Assembly: GCA_020746105.1 (NCBI GenBank)
Contig: CM036617.1
Span: 159,038,912-159,102,911 of the forward strand
DNA length: 64,000 nt
From: Trogon surrucura
Lineage: Eukaryota; Chordata; Aves; Trogoniformes; Trogonidae
Reading direction: 5' to 3'
The position numbers were made by a program, and so were the translations under genes. The notes under the pieces are model-generated. The model searched no databases and was not told where the DNA came from. It saw only the letters and a program-made list of their open reading frames with translations. The stretch's first letter is position 1; the number at the start of each line of letters is the position of its first letter. Shown piece after piece: positions 4,395 through 50,982 of the stretch.

Positions 4395-7300
4395 TTTCCC
4401 ACAGTGATCCTCTCGCTGTGGGCTGGTTTTTTGCCCACTCTTCAGCTATACCTGGCTGTGAGCATGCTCCTGCTCAAACCTCAAACTCTACCTGGAGTTC
4501 AAAATGCCACCATCTTGCTGGCATGGCACTGCCAGCCATGAAGCAGGCTCTTGGTACAGTTTCTCTTTTCTTGGAATCCTGGTATTAAGGCAAAGAGCAA
4601 AGCACACAACCGGGGCCAGGCAGGAGAGGGGAGGATGCTGAGGAGGGAGATGGTGCTGCCATGAGAGGTCACATTTCTGTAAGCTTTGCTCTTCACCAGT
4701 TTACAAGCTGTGCTGGAGGAAAGGGCTGATGTGCAGAGATGTCAGGCTGTACCACAGCACAGTTGTGTTCTTACACAGATCAATATTATGCCGTATCTGG
4801 GAAGAAAGCTTGAATTATTCAATCACTTGCCTAACTATGTGTAAGACTGTTTATAATCATGGACTTGGGTTCTGTCCATATTTATGAATGACCAGGGCTG
4901 AGTCTGGGCGTAATTCCAGCACTGATACTGTGTGTGGGTTGCACAACTATTGTGGATACATGACATTGTTGCTCCGCGCTGGGCCATGGGACGGATGGGA
5001 CATCTGGCAGAGCCTGTGCTCCCTGCTTTGAAGAGGTCGTGCACAGTGGGGACTGCTACTGTACAAGCACGCACGCCTGGCACACTTAGAAGTCCTCCTA
5101 CTGATTTAGCCACTGTCTCAGCTAAATCATAAATCCCTCTCCTTTGGATCATTTAAATAGTTACAAGCCACCACTTGAATCTCCAGCACTAATAATAATA
5201 AACCCCCCATTGCAGCTATTAAATTCCTTGAGTACTAATTGTTGACTTTTTTTGCCTTTTATTAAGGGCATATGGATACAACGTCTTTACTGTACTTGAC
5301 GAAATGTTGGGCAAAGTGTTGCAATTAGTTCCACAGCTGCTTTGGTCATTGATGTTAAACACTTGTACTTCTCTAGAGGCCATTTTAAATGGGAACCTGA
5401 TCCAGGCCATTATTACCACCCCCTTTTGCTTACTCCTTCGGCCGAAAGAGTGGAAGCCTTAATGTTACCTGGGGGAGAAAAGCAGCTAAACTGCCATGTC
5501 TCTGTTTCACTTATACCTCAAAGCTCTGCTCTGTAATGTGCTCTTCCTGCATGGCTCCTGGGCCCCAATACATAGAGCGTATTACTTTTATCCCCTGGTT
5601 CCCACTTTGCAATGATCTAGTCACAGGTGATCTGTTTGTTGTATTTTCCTTCTCTTCAAGGTCCCCTGTGTCAGGTGACCAGGTGAGAGCCCCTGCTGAC
5701 AGGACTAGCTCCCAGAGCTGGTCTTCATCCCCTCCTGGAAATAATCATGATCCCCTCAGCCTTGGTTGTCTGATGGTGCAAGGCACAAAGCAGAAAGACC
5801 TTCCTGCTTTGCCGATCCTATGGTCTAAAGCAGAGGACTACTGGTACTGCTGTATCCATTACCAGCTAATAGCTGTTGGCCGGTGTCCTGGATGACGGCT
5901 TCGCCTGCTGTACTGACATCCATCCAATTTGGGTAAATACTAGATTAAGCAAGAGCGAGGCAGGGAGAAAATGTCACGCTGATCTCCTAGAAACAGCCTG
6001 TGATGTATGACTTCTTTGCCTCGTCCTAAATGAATTAACACCGCTGTAGAAAACGGAAAAAACAAAACTCTCCATGCTTTCTACTTGTACATAATAAGGG
6101 AGGAAATTTTCCTTCTTGACCACATGTTGGCAGATCAGTAGATCCCTTCTGAAATGACACAGAGTTAAAGATGTAGAATAATGTTCCTGTGGTAGCATAA
6201 GACACTCTAATTTCACTTCCTTACCCACAATAATATCGTTTCAAGAAACACAACTCCAAGTTAGTGGGAAGCTGCCCTATTTATTTCTAGCAACTGTGAG
6301 TAACTACTGATAAAATAAGAGGAGCTAGTTTTGAGGGGGAAGCATTGTTCTTAATTGTAGCATGTCATGGGTCATTTGGTCATAGAAATATCCTGTGTTT
6401 TCTCTTCTGGAGTTATAATAGAGTTCCCTCTGTTGCTTCTAGAAATGTGCATGTACACAGCAACGGAGCTATGATGGAGCTCATCTTTTAAAGTCGGTGC
6501 TTACCCAACTCCTTTTCAAGTATAATTTTGCACAAAGACAGGATGTAGCATGTTGGTTGTGCACTCTACTTGACAAGTTTTAATTCTTCGTAGTTTCCCA
6601 ATGGCTGGACCACAGTGGCACAGCATCGTCCCCATCCGGTGGCAGGAACATGGTCCAGCCCTAAATGGTTAACTTCCTTGAGTTGGTCTGTCACCAATTA
6701 TCAGGAATGGCACTTCTCTTTGAAGACTACTCTCTTTGGGAGGAAGATGGTGGCTGCTGTTTTTAGAAAGCAAAAAATGCAATTACCTTTACCAAAGGAA
6801 GGGAGAAGCTCTAATAGGATTTTTTTATCAGACTATTTTTTTAGACTATTTGGGTAATTCAGTGATTATTACTGCACAGTTCTTTTTCCTTAGGGTATGC
6901 TAGACTGTTCCAAAAGCGTTTGTTAGTTTACTTAGACATTAAAGGGGTCCTTATGAATTTAGATTATGCTAAAGTACTTCAAAGTGTCCCTAGAGGTCCA
7001 GGCTGCTTTGAACTTAACCTTTTCTGCCCAGTCTTGTTATACGTGTGAGCCCAAAGATTGTAAGCAAGAGGTCGGTGATTCTCAGTCTTTTTAATACTTT
7101 GACCTATGTTACAACAGGAAAAAATAAACAAACCAGATTCCCTCTGATCTAGCCAGGAAGAAAGGGAGACGACAGTTTCAGTGGGCCTCTTTTTAACCCT
7201 CTTCTTAACCTGCTAGCTCTACTGACCCATTAAATAGGACAAGCAGGAAAAAACCAAACAAAACCCAACTTTAAATACTCACTGCCTACTTCTACCTGCT

Positions 7301-46765: not shown

Positions 46766-46771
46766 ATTTAT
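46766..46771 (+). repeat. Target-site duplication, upstream copy
   Basis: ATTTAT lies directly before the 5' LTR and is repeated exactly at 49404-49409 after the 3' LTR. A 6-bp duplication is usual for class II (alpha/beta-type) retroviral integrases. Confidence 0.93.
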
Positions 46772-47172
46772 TGTAGAGGAATTTCTTGTGGAGCAGAGGT
46801 GCGGTATAACTTTAAAAGTGTGGACAACCCAGCGTAGGCCTAAACAGAGGCTCTGTCCTTGAAGCTGCCTTGGAACACAGGGAGGAGGAGGTTTTATCTG
46901 TTTTGTGAGAGCTTTGCGAGATGCTTGGCGGGAGGTGCTGGCCCCGGGGGGAGAAGAGGGGGTGATAGCCGCTTGCATAGTGGAATGGCACTGCCCAATA
47001 AAACGCTGGCGCGTGTAAACCTGTAACCGACCAACTCTGTGAAGGGGCAGGCGCGGGGACACTGCTGAACTGTATATATTGAGCTGTCCGGAGCAATAAA
47101 GAGAGGACGATCTGTAGCCATATTGGTGTGATGATCGTTAACTTGGCCGGCTCTCCGAAGGGACCCTCTTCA
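46772..47172 (+). repeat. 5' LTR
   Basis: 401 bp, starting TGTAGAGGAA and ending CCTCTTCA, with TG...CA ends. AATAAA-type signals occur at 46997-47002 and 47095-47100, and a TATATATT string at 47073-47080. One plausible reading is a TATA-like AATAAAA at 46997 with the polyadenylation signal at 47095, but the U3/R/U5 limits cannot be fixed by eye. It is identical to the 3' LTR except C versus T at 46929 and one fewer G in the G run near 46946. Confidence 0.96.
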
Positions 47173-47174
47173 TC

Positions 47175-47192
47175 TGGCGCCCGAACAGGGAC
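47175..47192 (+). other. Primer binding site, tRNA-Lys type
   Basis: TGGCGCCCGAACAGGGAC lies two bases after the LTR end. It is the 18-nt complement of the 3' end of tRNA-Lys3, as used by MMTV and lentiviruses. Avian alpharetroviruses use tRNA-Trp instead. Confidence 0.93.
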
Positions 47193-47353
47193 CCTCTATG
47201 GACGCTTAAATGCGGATTGCTTAAATGCAGGAAGACTCCGAAGCATCGGACGTGAGCCGATTTGGGAGCCGGAGAGCTGGAGGCAGGAGAGTTCCGAGTG
47301 TGACCAAAAGGGCACCGGAGACCAGAGCTTGAGCGGCCGATCAAGCCCCTGCC

Positions 47354-47362
47354 AAGGTAAGA
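47354..47362 (+). other. Proviral major splice donor
   Basis: AAG|GTAAGA, a near-consensus donor, stands 11 bp before the gag ATG. This is the usual place for the donor that generates spliced env RNA. Confidence 0.75.
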
Positions 47363-47367
47363 CCGCA

Positions 47368-47805
47368 ATGGAAACGGACGCGGCAACTCGCCTCCTTAGT
47401 ATACTCTCTAAGAGAGGAGGAAAAGTAAAGGAGCGAGATGTATTAGCCCCATGGGCTCGGAAACAGGAGAAAATGAACGACCCACCATTAATCTTTAGTT
47501 CCACGGAATGGCGTGAAGTAGGAGACTTTTTGTGGGACTGTACTTTAGAGGGAGGAACAGAAGGAAAGGAAGTGAAAGAACTAGGAACGGTTTGGAAAAC
47601 CGTAATATGCACTCTAGAAATCATGCAAGCAGAAAAGAAAGTTGCTGCGGCAGCGATCGAAGCGTTGGGGGGAGGGCAGGAAAGGAAAAAAGCAAAGGAA
47701 GAAACTCCCTGCTCCTCCCGACTGGGTGGAAGAAACAGAAAAAAAAAAAAAAAGAAAAAAAAAAAAAGAAAAAAAAGGAGAAACTGCACTGCGTTGCAGA
47801 ATTAA
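47368..47805 (+). pseudogene. gag: gag remnant, matrix-like N-terminus
   Basis: The ATG stands just downstream of the leader and splice donor, as expected for gag. The first 115 or so codons form a plausible matrix-type domain: a short basic N-terminus (LLSILSKRGGKVKERD), then an STEWREVGDFLWDC segment and an EIMQAEKKVAAAAIEALGGG helix. There is no obvious N-terminal myristoylation glycine after the Met. The frame then runs into the A-rich tract at 47737, becomes a Lys/Arg run and stops at 47805, so capsid and nucleocapsid are not joined to it. Assignment rests on position and general matrix-like character rather than on a diagnostic motif. It is a non-functional copy. Confidence 0.75.
47737..47780. 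repeat. A-rich tract inside the provirus
   Basis: Runs of A (up to about 15) are broken by single G. It interrupts the gag frame and probably varies in length. Confidence 0.9.
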
Positions 47806-48053
47806 GACTTTCGTCCTTGAGCTGAGCTCTTTTCTAAACAAGTCCATAACTCTTGCTTGCTAATTATGAAAAGAGACCCTGACCAGCCAGGTACAGCTCA
47901 TGTTGAGAGCTTGTCCGTGAGAATGAAGATAAGACGCTTCTTGTACACCAGATGTGCATGGGAGTGAACGGGAGAGTATGATCAAAACAGACCTGGGAAA
48001 TTCTGCTCTCCCTGTGTGATAACAGTGTGATCGAAGTAATACTTGAGCTAATA
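47781..48053 (+). other. Unassigned segment between the two A-rich tracts of the provirus
   Basis: About 270 bp with stops in all three plus frames and no retroviral motif I recognise. Gag-like coding lies on both outer sides of the flanking A-rich tracts. It may be decayed gag, or foreign sequence picked up by template switching. The sequence alone does not decide. Confidence 0.5.
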
Positions 48054-48128
48054 AGAAAAAAAAAAAAGAAAAAAAAAAGGAAAAAAAAAAGGAAAAAAAA
48101 AAAAGAGAGAGGGGGAAGAAGGAAGATC
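48054..48128. repeat. Second A/G-rich tract inside the provirus
   Basis: Units of A8-A12 separated by G or GG pass into GAGAGAGGGGGAAGAAGG. It is purine-only over about 70 bp and similar in character to the tract at 47737. Confidence 0.9.
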
Positions 48129-48274
48129 AGGATGAACCCCTGAAAGAGATCCTGAACAAACTCGCTGAATTATCAACTGGACAGCGAGAAATAGAAGAAA
48201 CCCTTAAACCAGTTCAGCTCCCCCATTACCATCAGCTCCCTCACTCAAGCCTGATTTTCAAGCTTGAACCATAA
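48122..48274 (+). pseudogene. gag: gag remnant, charged helical segment
   Basis: An open stretch directly after the purine tract begins EDQDEPLKEILNKLAELSTG and continues with EIEETLKPVQ. It is heptad-like and charged, resembling the coiled-coil or linker region between matrix and capsid in beta-type Gag. A stop ends it at 48272-48274. It is not in frame with the capsid-like piece that follows. Confidence 0.5.
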
Positions 48275-48291
48275 AGGATCCTTTGCAATAG

Positions 48292-48411
48292 CGATGGAGC
48301 GGTGTCATCAGAGACGCTATAACAGAGGGAGATTGGGAAGCAGCCAGTTCGATTGCGTGTCCTGTTATTATTAATAACGGACAAGGGACCTGGGAACCGC
48401 ATGATCCTGCA
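48292..48411 (+). pseudogene. gag: gag remnant, capsid-like fragment
   Basis: Between a TAG at 48289-48291 and a TGA at 48412-48414 there are 40 codons including GVIRDAITEGDWEAASS and GQGTWEPHD. The A-x-x-EGDWE type pattern resembles the N-terminal capsid domain of class II retroviral Gag. Only this small part of capsid is left, and no major homology region or zinc knuckle is visible downstream. Confidence 0.6.
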
Positions 48412-48578
48412 TGATGTGGCTGTGCAGCATCCTGTCACTTCAGCAGCGCAGCAGCAACACGACCGTGCACTGGGCCTGCCTGTTGAACCCCTTGTTTCGC
48501 CCAGTGACGTGATGGGACCCAGAGGTACTGATTACCAACGACGATATGGGTTGGACTGGCAGAAGATGCTTACGGCTG

Positions 48579-48698
48579 ATGGCAGAGCGATTATGGGAAA
48601 ATGTGACTGTTCTCAATGTTACCTGTTGTATTAATATGTATCCTCTTTGTGTGACTAACAATGAAGCTTATATTGGTTGTGTAATCAAAGCCACATAG
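48579..48698 (+). pseudogene. env: env-like remnant, surface-subunit type
   Basis: Thirty-nine codons from an ATG to a TAG carry two N-V-T glycosylation sequons and four cysteines, including a CC pair and a PLCVTNN stretch. The position after gag pieces and before a transmembrane-type segment suits a piece of the envelope surface subunit. It is too short for firm family placement. The intervening 48415-48578 is unassigned. Confidence 0.4.
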
Positions 48699-48852
48699 TA
48701 GGTGTTAAGGTTTATGTACTAACCAGCAGAGTGATCTTTCTTTAGCTAAAAGCAAGGCAGGGAAACCAGCTGCCTTTTGCTTTGTTAGAAGTGTGTGATT
48801 AAGGATCAAAGTACGATTTAGGGTGATGGGTGTGAGAACTTTGACAGGATGA
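48699..48852 (+). other. Proviral interior without recognisable coding
   Basis: Stops are frequent in every plus frame between the two env-like pieces. I see no pol motif. Confidence 0.5.
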
Positions 48853-49092
48853 ATTAAGAGTTTAGTTAAGACATTTTTGGTTATTGCAGTTTTAATTGTT
48901 ATAGGCTTAGTTATGTTTAGTTGTTTGATAAATATAATCAAGAAAATGATAAGCAAGCTAGCGGATGAAGCCTGGGTTGTCCAAAAAGAAAAAGGGGGAT
49001 ATGTAGAGGAATTTCTTGTGGAGCAGAGGTGCGGTATAACTTTAAAAGTGTGGACAACCCAGCGTAGGCCTAAACAGAGGCTCTGTCCTTGA
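48853..49092 (+). pseudogene. env: env-like remnant, transmembrane segment and cytoplasmic tail
   Basis: An open frame carries a strongly hydrophobic run (VIAVLIVIGLVMFSCLINII) followed by a basic and charged tail (KKMISKLADEAWVVQKEKGG). It then reads on through the polypurine tract into the 3' LTR and stops at 49092. A single membrane span just before the polypurine tract is what the end of retroviral env looks like. The fusion peptide and ectodomain are missing. Confidence 0.65.
48982..49000 (+). other. Polypurine tract
   Basis: AAAAAGAAAAAGGGGGA precedes the 3' LTR and would prime plus-strand DNA synthesis. The LTR starts at TG, 49002. Confidence 0.85.
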
Positions 49093-49403
49093 AGCTGCCT
49101 TGGAACACAGGGAGGAGGAGGTTTTATCTGTTTTGTGAGAGCTTTGCGAGATGCTTGGTGGGAGGTGCTGGCCCCGGGGGGGAGAAGAGGGGGTGATAGC
49201 CGCTTGCATAGTGGAATGGCACTGCCCAATAAAACGCTGGCGCGTGTAAACCTGTAACCGACCAACTCTGTGAAGGGGCAGGCGCGGGGACACTGCTGAA
49301 CTGTATATATTGAGCTGTCCGGAGCAATAAAGAGAGGACGATCTGTAGCCATATTGGTGTGATGATCGTTAACTTGGCCGGCTCTCCGAAGGGACCCTCT
49401 TCA
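49002..49403 (+). repeat. 3' LTR
   Basis: 402 bp, the same as the 5' LTR except T at 49159 (C in the 5' copy, within a CpG) and one extra G in the run near 49176-49182. It ends CCTCTTCA and is followed by the second target duplication. Confidence 0.96.
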
Positions 49404-49409
49404 ATTTAT
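49404..49409 (+). repeat. Target-site duplication, downstream copy
   Basis: ATTTAT, matching 46766-46771. Confidence 0.93.
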
Positions 49410-49688: not shown

Positions 49689-50336
49689 ACTTATCCCCTG
49701 GGCCAGAAGGGCCAGATGTGTTGCATGGACAACATGTTTAATCTGTGAATGATCATCCTTAACGGATCCCCTCCAGACAGTCCAAAAGTCACATTACTGG
49801 ACCCCAGCCCACTTTAGATAGAAGGACAAGACCACCCAATCTGGTGCCTTTAGGGAAGGGAGAAAGTGGAATTACTGTGATCACTGTGATTAATAATTTC
49901 ACATTTTATGCAAGCAGTTCTACAGTCTGTGGCCAAAATGCTTTTATATTGGTGCCTAACCCAAGGCAGCTAAAGCCCCATTGTGACATCTAAAAGGTTA
50001 ATTGACCATATGATTCTAATAGTTAAAAGGTGTTGTTACTTTCAGATGTTGCTATAACTCCTTTTGTTTAGTTATGCAATGTCTAGCATACTGCACACAT
50101 AAATTGCGGCGATGAGCATGAACTATCCTGACGAAATACGGACACCTCTGGAACTGAGGCAAAAGCAATTTACCACATTACATGGGAGGGGAAAAACCTG
50201 TTAAAATCTTTCTAAGGACAATTATGGCAAATATATGTTAAAAGGCTTTGAGACCTTGCACGATAATGAGCCCATGTCTCCCTAGGAGAGGTAACAAGGT
50301 GAAACAACAGTGTCAGGATTGAAGCCTCTTATATAT
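49689..50336 (+). other. Unassigned spacer between two CR1 copies
   Basis: About 650 bp between the CR1 tail and the next CR1 copy. I recognise no gene. Some of it could be an unrecognised repeat, because it lies in a repeat-dense cluster, but no LTR ends or tails are evident. Confidence 0.4.
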
Positions 50337-50982
50337 CTGATGGGCAGCAGGATGACCATGAGCCAGAACTGTGACCTTGTGGCCAGGAAGGCCAATGGCA
50401 TCCTGGGGTGTATTAGAAGGGGGGTGGTTAGTAGGTCAAGAGAGGTTCTCCTTCCCCTCTACTCTGCCCTGGTGAGACCCCATCTGGAATATTGTGTCCA
50501 GTTCTGGGCCCCTCAGTTCAAGAAAGACAGGGAAGTGCTGGAGAGAGTCCAGCACAGGGCAACTAGGATGATTAAGGGAGTGGAGCATCTCCCTTATGAG
50601 AAAAGGCTGAAGGAGCTGGGGCTCTTTAGTTTGGAGAAGAGGAGACTGAGGGGTTACCTCATTAAGGTTTACAAATATATAAAGGGTGAATGTCATGAGG
50701 ATGGAGCCAGGCTCTTTTTGGTGGCAACCAATGATAGGACAAGGGGTAATGGGCTGAAACTGGAACATAAGAGGTTCCACTTAAACTCAAGAAGAAACTT
50801 CTTCTCAGTGAGGGTGATGGAACACTGGAACAGGCTGCCCAGAGAGGTTGTGGAGTCTCCTTCTCTGGAGACATTCAAGTTCCTATGTAGCATAGTCTAG
50901 GCATTCCTGCTCTGGCAGGGGGATTGGACTTGATGATCTTTCGAGGTCCCTTCCAATCCCTGACATTCTGTGATTCTGTGAT
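50337..50982 (+). mobile_element. CR1 LINE, 5'-truncated, with long open ORF2 C-terminus
   Basis: A 646-bp plus-strand CR1 3' end finishing with GGTCCCTTCCAATCCCTGACA and an (ATTCTGTG)n tail. The frame through 50310-50900 is open for 196 codons, with the typical reverse-transcriptase C-terminal series: [47 protein letters not shown] and [19 protein letters not shown]. The catalytic YxDD part and the endonuclease domain are absent, so it cannot move by itself. The open frame over this length suggests a fairly recent copy. Confidence 0.95.

What the first reader, a model, noticed from the sequence alone, without database searches (positions are those of the whole stretch)
46766..49409. Very young but internally reduced (non-autonomous) retroviral element
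Seen: 401/402-bp LTRs differ by one C/T change and one G indel, and a perfect 6-bp target duplication flanks a body of only about 1.83 kb with gag and env-like scraps and no pol motif. The ends show normal reverse transcription and integration. Inference: the deletions probably existed before insertion and the copy was made with proteins from a related virus or ERV. With an assumed avian neutral rate near 2e-9 per site per year, one substitution would mean well under 1-2 million years. This may represent a family of short trans-mobilised elements.
Basis: partly seen in the sequence, partly recalled or inferred. Interest (0 to 1): 0.78.

Follow-up and report, generated by a model that had tools for sequence, protein, structure and literature searches.

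The report
Short hitchhiking bird retroviral element family
The window holds one copy of a young, gene-poor retroviral element that has spread through this (apparently bird) genome, most likely by borrowing the proteins of longer relatives that are still present there.

Summary
The element (46772-49403, ATTTAT on both sides) belongs to a multicopy, internally reduced ERV family. Of 33 other places in the same genome whose LTRs best match it I fetched 24: 17 are two-LTR elements of about 2.6 kb with the same internal pieces in the same order, 7 are solo LTRs. Of 18 complete copies (window included) 16 have an exact 6-bp duplication, each different; LTR pairs differ by 18 in 7212 sites. So the deletions predate insertion. 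Copies are mosaics. The genome also holds longer relatives with LTRs 82-96% alike: gag-retaining elements with no room for RT and integrase (18 of 20 gag loci probed) and at least one with gag, RT thumb, RNase H and integrase. New details: 267 bp of a foreign ERV's LTR between A-rich tracts replaces part of gag; the 3' end is an env tail. The mode is known from mammals. Mobilisation in trans is inferred, not shown.

The parts
46766..46771 (.). 5' copy of target-site duplication ATTTAT
46772..47172 (+). 5' LTR, 401 bp
   Evidence: 39 other scored LTR hits at 99-100% in the same genome, one of them the window's own 3' LTR
47175..47192 (+). primer binding site TGGCGCCCGAACAGGGAC (tRNA-Lys3 type; label recalled, Lys3/Lys5 difference read in PMC4549124). 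11 of 15 copies examined carry TGGCGCCTGAACAAGGGAC instead
47193..47367 (+). untranslated leader; 70-92% to the longer relatives, piecewise
47368..47805 (+). open frame of 145 aa; 47368-47691 is the N-terminal part of gag (54% to residues 1-111 of a 498-aa gag-like protein of Aphelocoma coerulescens); the rest runs into the A-rich tract
47739..47776 (+). first A-rich tract, length varies between copies
47786..48052 (+). piece of a foreign ERV LTR, same orientation, 91% to L037:278-544; lies where the longer relatives have about 310-335 bp of gag
48053..48104 (+). second A-rich tract, followed by a purine or G run
48116..48405 (+). second gag scrap up to the start of the capsid domain; two pieces in different frames with about 90 nt missing between them; 2 in-frame stops here
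48406..48720 (+). segment of unknown origin, present in all 18 complete copies; env-like only by eye
   Evidence: no useful match
48721..48813 (+). piece 90-94% identical to DNA just 3' of a weak RNase H match in longer relatives
48815..49001 (+). env transmembrane tail and polypurine tract (48983-48999); 92-100% identical in 22 of 24 downstream stretches of gag loci
49002..49403 (+). 3' LTR, 402 bp
49404..49409 (.). 3' copy of target-site duplication ATTTAT

Best explanation
This is a copy of a young, non-autonomous class II (ERVK/betaretrovirus-like) ERV family of about 2.6 kb. Its LTR would drive an RNA that keeps the cis signals (leader, PBS, polypurine tract, LTR ends) but no usable protein genes. 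That RNA is packaged by Gag, and reverse transcribed and integrated by Pol, supplied by longer relatives in the same genome, giving complete two-LTR copies with 6-bp duplications. SHOWN: shared internal structure, separate insertions, normal ends, youth, mosaicism, presence of gag-retaining relatives and of at least one pol-bearing relative with a similar LTR. INFERRED: transcription, packaging by those relatives' Gag, and use of their Pol.
For: 17 of 24 other fetched places are two-LTR elements with all internal pieces in order, 2591-2621 bp in the 14 measured. 16 of 18 complete copies (window included) have exact 6-bp duplications, all distinct. LTR pairs differ at 18 of 7212 sites. Segment 48406-48720: 998 first-look candidates, 40 of 40 scored at 98-100% over its whole length. 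The second gag scrap has 1-3 stops in 17 of 18 copies (stop positions not compared). Recombination among 15 copies. Longer relatives: 8 of 8 gag loci read have LTRs 83-91% and gag N-terminus 87-89% alike; a relative on C2 has gag open for 748 aa, RVT_thumb, RNase H, Integrase_Zn and rve, LTR 90.6%.
Against: No expression, particle or mobilisation data. No longer relative seen has an LTR as close to the element as the mini copies are to each other (best 95.8%, L058, with no room for pol). In 9 of 9 relatives checked the PBS leaves the tRNA-like sequence after 15 nt (3 of them also differ inside it), and 11 of 15 mini copies have yet another form; only the broken relative around L011 has the window's PBS. 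So helper and primer are not matched exactly. The sample was drawn by LTR similarity, which favours young copies. L020 and L025 lack an exact duplication. The 145-aa frame shows no purifying selection.
Confidence: 0.9

Rival explanations
1. A full-length provirus inserted here and lost its genes by deletion afterwards.
For: Nothing found; the shape of the window alone would allow it.
Against: 17 other complete copies with different flanks and duplications share the same internal pieces and order.
Confidence: 0.01
2. The copies spread as reinfecting particles (defective genomes carried by an Env-bearing virus or ERV) rather than by retrotransposition inside germ cells.
For: A related ERV (around L011) has an env with Avian_gp85 and TLV_coat matches; cattle ERVK[2-1-LTR] elements, D-type included, are thought to move by reinfection (PMC10924933, headings and section 11).
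Against: No test separates the two here; 18 of 20 gag loci probed have no room for RT and integrase, and env was not looked for in the pol-bearing relative.
Confidence: 0.35
3. The helper is not the same clade but another ERV family with an open pol.
For: The RVT_thumb search (150 of 234 candidates scored) shows other sets of like-scoring pol loci with open frames of 875 and 904 aa. Upstream probes of one locus of each set (L067, L068) gave no match to the element, but the probes were placed by the C2 spacing and may have missed the 5' ends.
Against: Shared LTR ends, leader and gag start with a pol-bearing relative on C2, and a 3' end 92-100% identical to gag-retaining relatives, point to exchange within the clade.
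Confidence: 0.25
4. LINE (CR1) machinery or DNA-level duplication made the copies.
For: CR1-like sequence is seen near the element by eye (not searched).
Against: Two complete LTRs, TG...CA ends and 6-bp duplications are the marks of retroviral reverse transcription and integration.
Confidence: 0.01

Closest known systems
ETn / MusD of mouse (as described in passages of PMC10089650)
   Same: Non-autonomous ERVK-type LTR family thought to be mobilised by a coding relative with which it shares sequence.
   Different: Mammal; ETn anatomy is recalled, not looked up. Here a gag N-terminus remains and the insert is a piece of another ERV's LTR.
Cattle ERVK[2-1-LTR] C-type / D-type elements (PMC10924933: abstract and outline, section 11, passages)
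   Same: Competent and defective subclades with shared ends and a poorly alignable centre; Lys-tRNA PBS; pervasive recombination; defective copies outnumber competent ones.
   Different: D-type is about 6.8 kb and its movement was measured; here 2.6 kb, bird-like genome, no movement data, and a middle tier of gag-retaining elements without RT and integrase.
Deer mouse non-autonomous ERVK subfamilies with mysTR (passages of PMC10089650)
   Same: Multicopy non-autonomous ERVK-like families related to coding ones upstream of the 3' LTR, internal sequence replaced by recombination.
   Different: Different host class and sequences; here the 5' leader and gag start are kept too.
HeT-A of Drosophila (recalled, not searched)
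   Same: An element that keeps gag but lacks its own reverse transcriptase, like the gag-retaining relatives here.
   Different: Non-LTR telomeric element.

Membership tests
Class II / ERVK (betaretrovirus-like) ERV | 6-bp target duplication (recalled criterion) | tested here: met
   16 of 18 complete copies exact
Class II / ERVK (betaretrovirus-like) ERV | Lysine-tRNA type PBS | tested here: met
   Sequence; T at position 8 is the Lys5-type change in PMC4549124. The extra A of the commoner form was not matched to a tRNA (pattern search unanswered)
Class II / ERVK (betaretrovirus-like) ERV | gag with p24 and zinc knuckle, dUTPase next to protease in one frame (recalled for betaretroviruses), in a relative | tested here: met
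   L044 only: Gag_p24_C, zf-CCHC, dUTPase 1.1e-22, RVP 9.2e-19; P0002 matches ERVK capsid chains in the PDB best, E 2.8e-6, but also Rous sarcoma virus capsid
Class II / ERVK (betaretrovirus-like) ERV | RT phylogeny inside class II | not tested
   no RT tree built
[quoted passage not shown]
   18 complete copies; the one exception to 'no ORF' is a 139-161 aa frame at the gag start, open in 15 of 15 examined
Non-autonomous LTR family mobilised in trans | coding relative sharing cis-acting ends in the same genome | tested here: met
   C2 relative: LTR 90.6%, leader 87%, gag start 86%, pol domains; its 3' end was not read
Non-autonomous LTR family mobilised in trans | mobilisation shown to depend on the relative | not testable with these tools
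   needs pedigree or particle data
TRIM (miniature LTR element) | very short, no gag remnant (recalled) | tested here: not met
   2.6 kb with gag pieces

The most novel reading that the evidence does not exclude
The genome runs a three-tier chain of dependence: a few pol-bearing elements, many gag-retaining elements without RT or integrase that may supply Gag in trans, and a swarm of 2.6-kb elements that use both; and the captured foreign LTR piece with its flanking A/G tracts is kept because it does something for the mini element (for example an internal promoter or a second plus-strand primer site).
Probability: 0.25. Interest if true: 0.7.

Novelty: new member of a known kind. Interest (0 to 1): 0.52.

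Why it matters
Parasites of parasites are proposed to help drive ERV families to extinction (PMC10924933, abstract). A young case in a bird-like genome with all tiers still present, more than one PBS type and clear mosaics would let that idea be tested outside mammals with ordinary resequencing. It also warns that counting LTR pairs as intact ERVs can include elements with no usable genes.

Tried and rejected
Pfam on the element's own pieces: no credible match. PDB sequence search with the gag-start piece: none. Rfam on the window: none at gathering scores. Viral-contig scans with an LTR pattern, the gag-start piece and P0002: nothing. Env-like piece 48513-48698 against 5.8 billion proteins: none. 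Purifying selection on the gag-start frame: no sign in 15 copies, pN/pS 0.665 in frame against 0.593 and 0.537 in the shifted frames, variable columns 19/23/18 by codon position; one copy, L028, has a one-base gap. Segmental duplication rejected by distinct duplications. Host species not identified; 'bird' is inferred from gag hits in Zosterops and Aphelocoma, the Avian_gp85 match and CR1-like flanks seen by eye. Literature: the listings of seven searches showed me no description of this family in birds; only open-licence full texts are held and Repbase/Dfam could not be searched, so it may already be catalogued there.
Full report
OBSERVATION. The element is 2632 bp; the body is 1829 bp. CpG is about 0.6 of expectation in the element against 0.24 in the window as a whole, as expected of a recent insert. 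The one substitution is at a CpG and the indel in a G run; compared with 40 LTRs that fitted the pattern, both derived states are on the window's 3' LTR.

FAMILY. Searching the window's own genome (1.166 Gb, 164 contigs) with the 5' LTR gave 2090 first-look candidates; the 40 scored were all 99-100% identical, at 34 places including the window. I fetched 24 of the 33 others (20, 4; 9 not fetched). Two of the last 4, and 3 of the first 20, already showed both LTRs in the list. Seventeen are two-LTR elements with leader, gag start, foreign-LTR piece, second gag scrap, 48406-48720 segment and 3' piece in the same order; seven are solo LTRs. All eighteen complete copies, window included, lie in different target sequences; 16 have exact 6-bp duplications, L020 matches at 5 of 6 bases and L025 has a changed LTR end. 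Six of seven solos have 6 bp and one 7 bp. A search with 48406-48720 gave 998 first-look candidates and 40 of 40 scored at 98-100%; about 70 distinct places were seen. First-look numbers are not copy counts. The sample is biased to the closest, hence youngest, LTRs.

AGE. Eighteen LTR pairs, 0 to 3 substitutions each, 18 in 7212 sites, 0.25%. At an assumed 2e-9 per site per year this is about 0.6 My. LTR pairs of eight gag-retaining relatives differ at 16 of 3058 sites, 0.52%, so the two classes were active over overlapping recent periods.

ANATOMY. The gag start matches a 178-aa Zosterops protein (50%) and residues 1-111 of a 498-aa Aphelocoma protein with Gag_p24 (54%). Gag continues as residues 242-268 and 306-370 at 48116-48405, in two frames with two stops, ending where the capsid domain begins. 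That last stretch has 1-3 stops in 17 of 18 copies; L015 aligned only in part, without a stop. Stop positions were not compared, but the shared pieces, order and missing ~90 nt show that the reduction is inherited. Between the gag parts lie an A-rich tract, 276 bp and a second A-rich tract (15 copies). Of the 276 bp, 267 match L037:278-544 at 91%, outside the gag element of that locus. That sequence is itself repeated: 1709 first-look candidates, 40 scored; 31 of the 40 start at query base 60 or 61, beside a TG, and six pairs lie on one strand 3.1-4.2 kb apart. I read this as the LTR of another ERV family. The 3' 187 bp is an env tail: it aligns to the end of an env frame in the ERV into which the L011 copy is nested. 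The origin of 48406-48720 is unknown.

RELATIVES. Gag protein P0002 gave 3288 first-look candidates, of which 86 were scored, many open for 770-791 aa. All eight loci read have 5' LTRs 83-91% like the element (one in two pieces), gag start 87-89%, second gag scrap 89-94%, and none shows the foreign piece inside gag. These LTR figures count a gap of about 25 bp in most of them as mismatch. Downstream of four (three of the eight and one other) the 3' LTR begins 0.4-2.7 kb into the next stretch; L044 has p24 C-terminus, zinc knuckle, dUTPase and protease, then only a weak RNase H match, and L042 and L043 gave no Pfam match at 0.001 (L042 has weak RNase H at 0.0005 when its open frame is scanned alone). 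Of 20 further probes 3.7-4.9 kb from the gag start (five at loci already read), 18 show the env-tail piece (92-100%) and a 3' LTR (82-96%), leaving no room for RT and integrase; two, L055 and L064, do not. L055 gave no Pfam match. L064 belongs to a C2 locus with gag open for 748 aa, RVT_thumb 3.47 kb from the gag start, then RNase H, integrase zinc and core domains in a 400-aa open stretch, and an LTR 90.6% like the element. Its 3' end was not read. Other like-scoring pol sets exist; two probes meant to catch their 5' ends (L067, L068) did not match the element.

RECOMBINATION. In 15 copies, 360 of 780 pairs of non-CpG informative sites show all four combinations; this share rises with distance (0.35 within 200 bp to about 0.6 beyond 1 kb; 1 of 3 in the last bin), and neighbour incompatibility is as low as observed in 1 of 5000 shuffles. 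In 13 of the 18 probes the env-tail piece is 98-100% identical to the element's, while in 12 of these 13 the adjoining LTR is only 84-88% alike, gap included, which suggests exchange between tiers. Template switching between co-packaged RNAs explains both; gene conversion between chromosomal copies is not excluded.

PRIMER. Eleven of 15 copies have TGGCGCCTGAACAAGGGAC, the other four the Lys3-like form, L012 with one change. T at position 8 is the Lys5-type change described for HIV/SIV (PMC4549124, part 1 of 2 of the text). The extra A is unexplained. Eight gag-retaining relatives and the C2 locus match only over about 15 nt; the broken ERV around L011 has the window's form.

COMPARISON. The anatomy works like ETn/MusD, deer mouse and cattle D-type elements (PMC10089650 passages; PMC10924933 abstract, section 11 and passages). 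It meets the structural criteria tested for a non-autonomous ERVK-like family; dependence on helpers is inferred. The listings of the searches named above showed no bird report of this family; in PMC5006616 two passages mention non-autonomous elements in general, and none of my six terms occurs in PMC6523648.

Noticed in passing
L011:1-1788 and 4402-5661, with L033: One mini copy is inserted, in reverse, between the gag and env of a related ERV that has no pol at this locus and an env with Avian_gp85 and TLV_coat matches.
   Followed up: partly
L037:150-580 (minus strand): High-copy LTR-like repeat of another ERV family, source of the captured piece; six same-strand pairs 3.1-4.2 kb apart among 40 scored hits.
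   Followed up: partly
G000: Two sets of pol loci with like RVT_thumb scores and open frames of 875 and 904 aa, many on contigs C60-C63; these contigs may be a W chromosome, as in the refugium described in PMC8310711 (passages), not tested.
   Followed up: no
G000:C2:110312554: The tool reports an open frame of 16548 aa for this pol match, which looks like an artefact of the report.
   Followed up: no
47739-47776 and 48053-48104: Long A-rich runs on both sides of the foreign LTR piece, the second ending in a purine or G run like a polypurine tract; lengths vary among the 15 copies listed.
   Followed up: partly
50295-50900: 201-aa open frame that looks like the end of a CR1 reverse transcriptase (by eye; no Pfam match).
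   Followed up: no
L052, reverse-complemented, bases 821-1191: A more diverged neighbour (86%) of the unknown segment plus the next 90 bp, in reverse orientation just past a 3' LTR.
   Followed up: no
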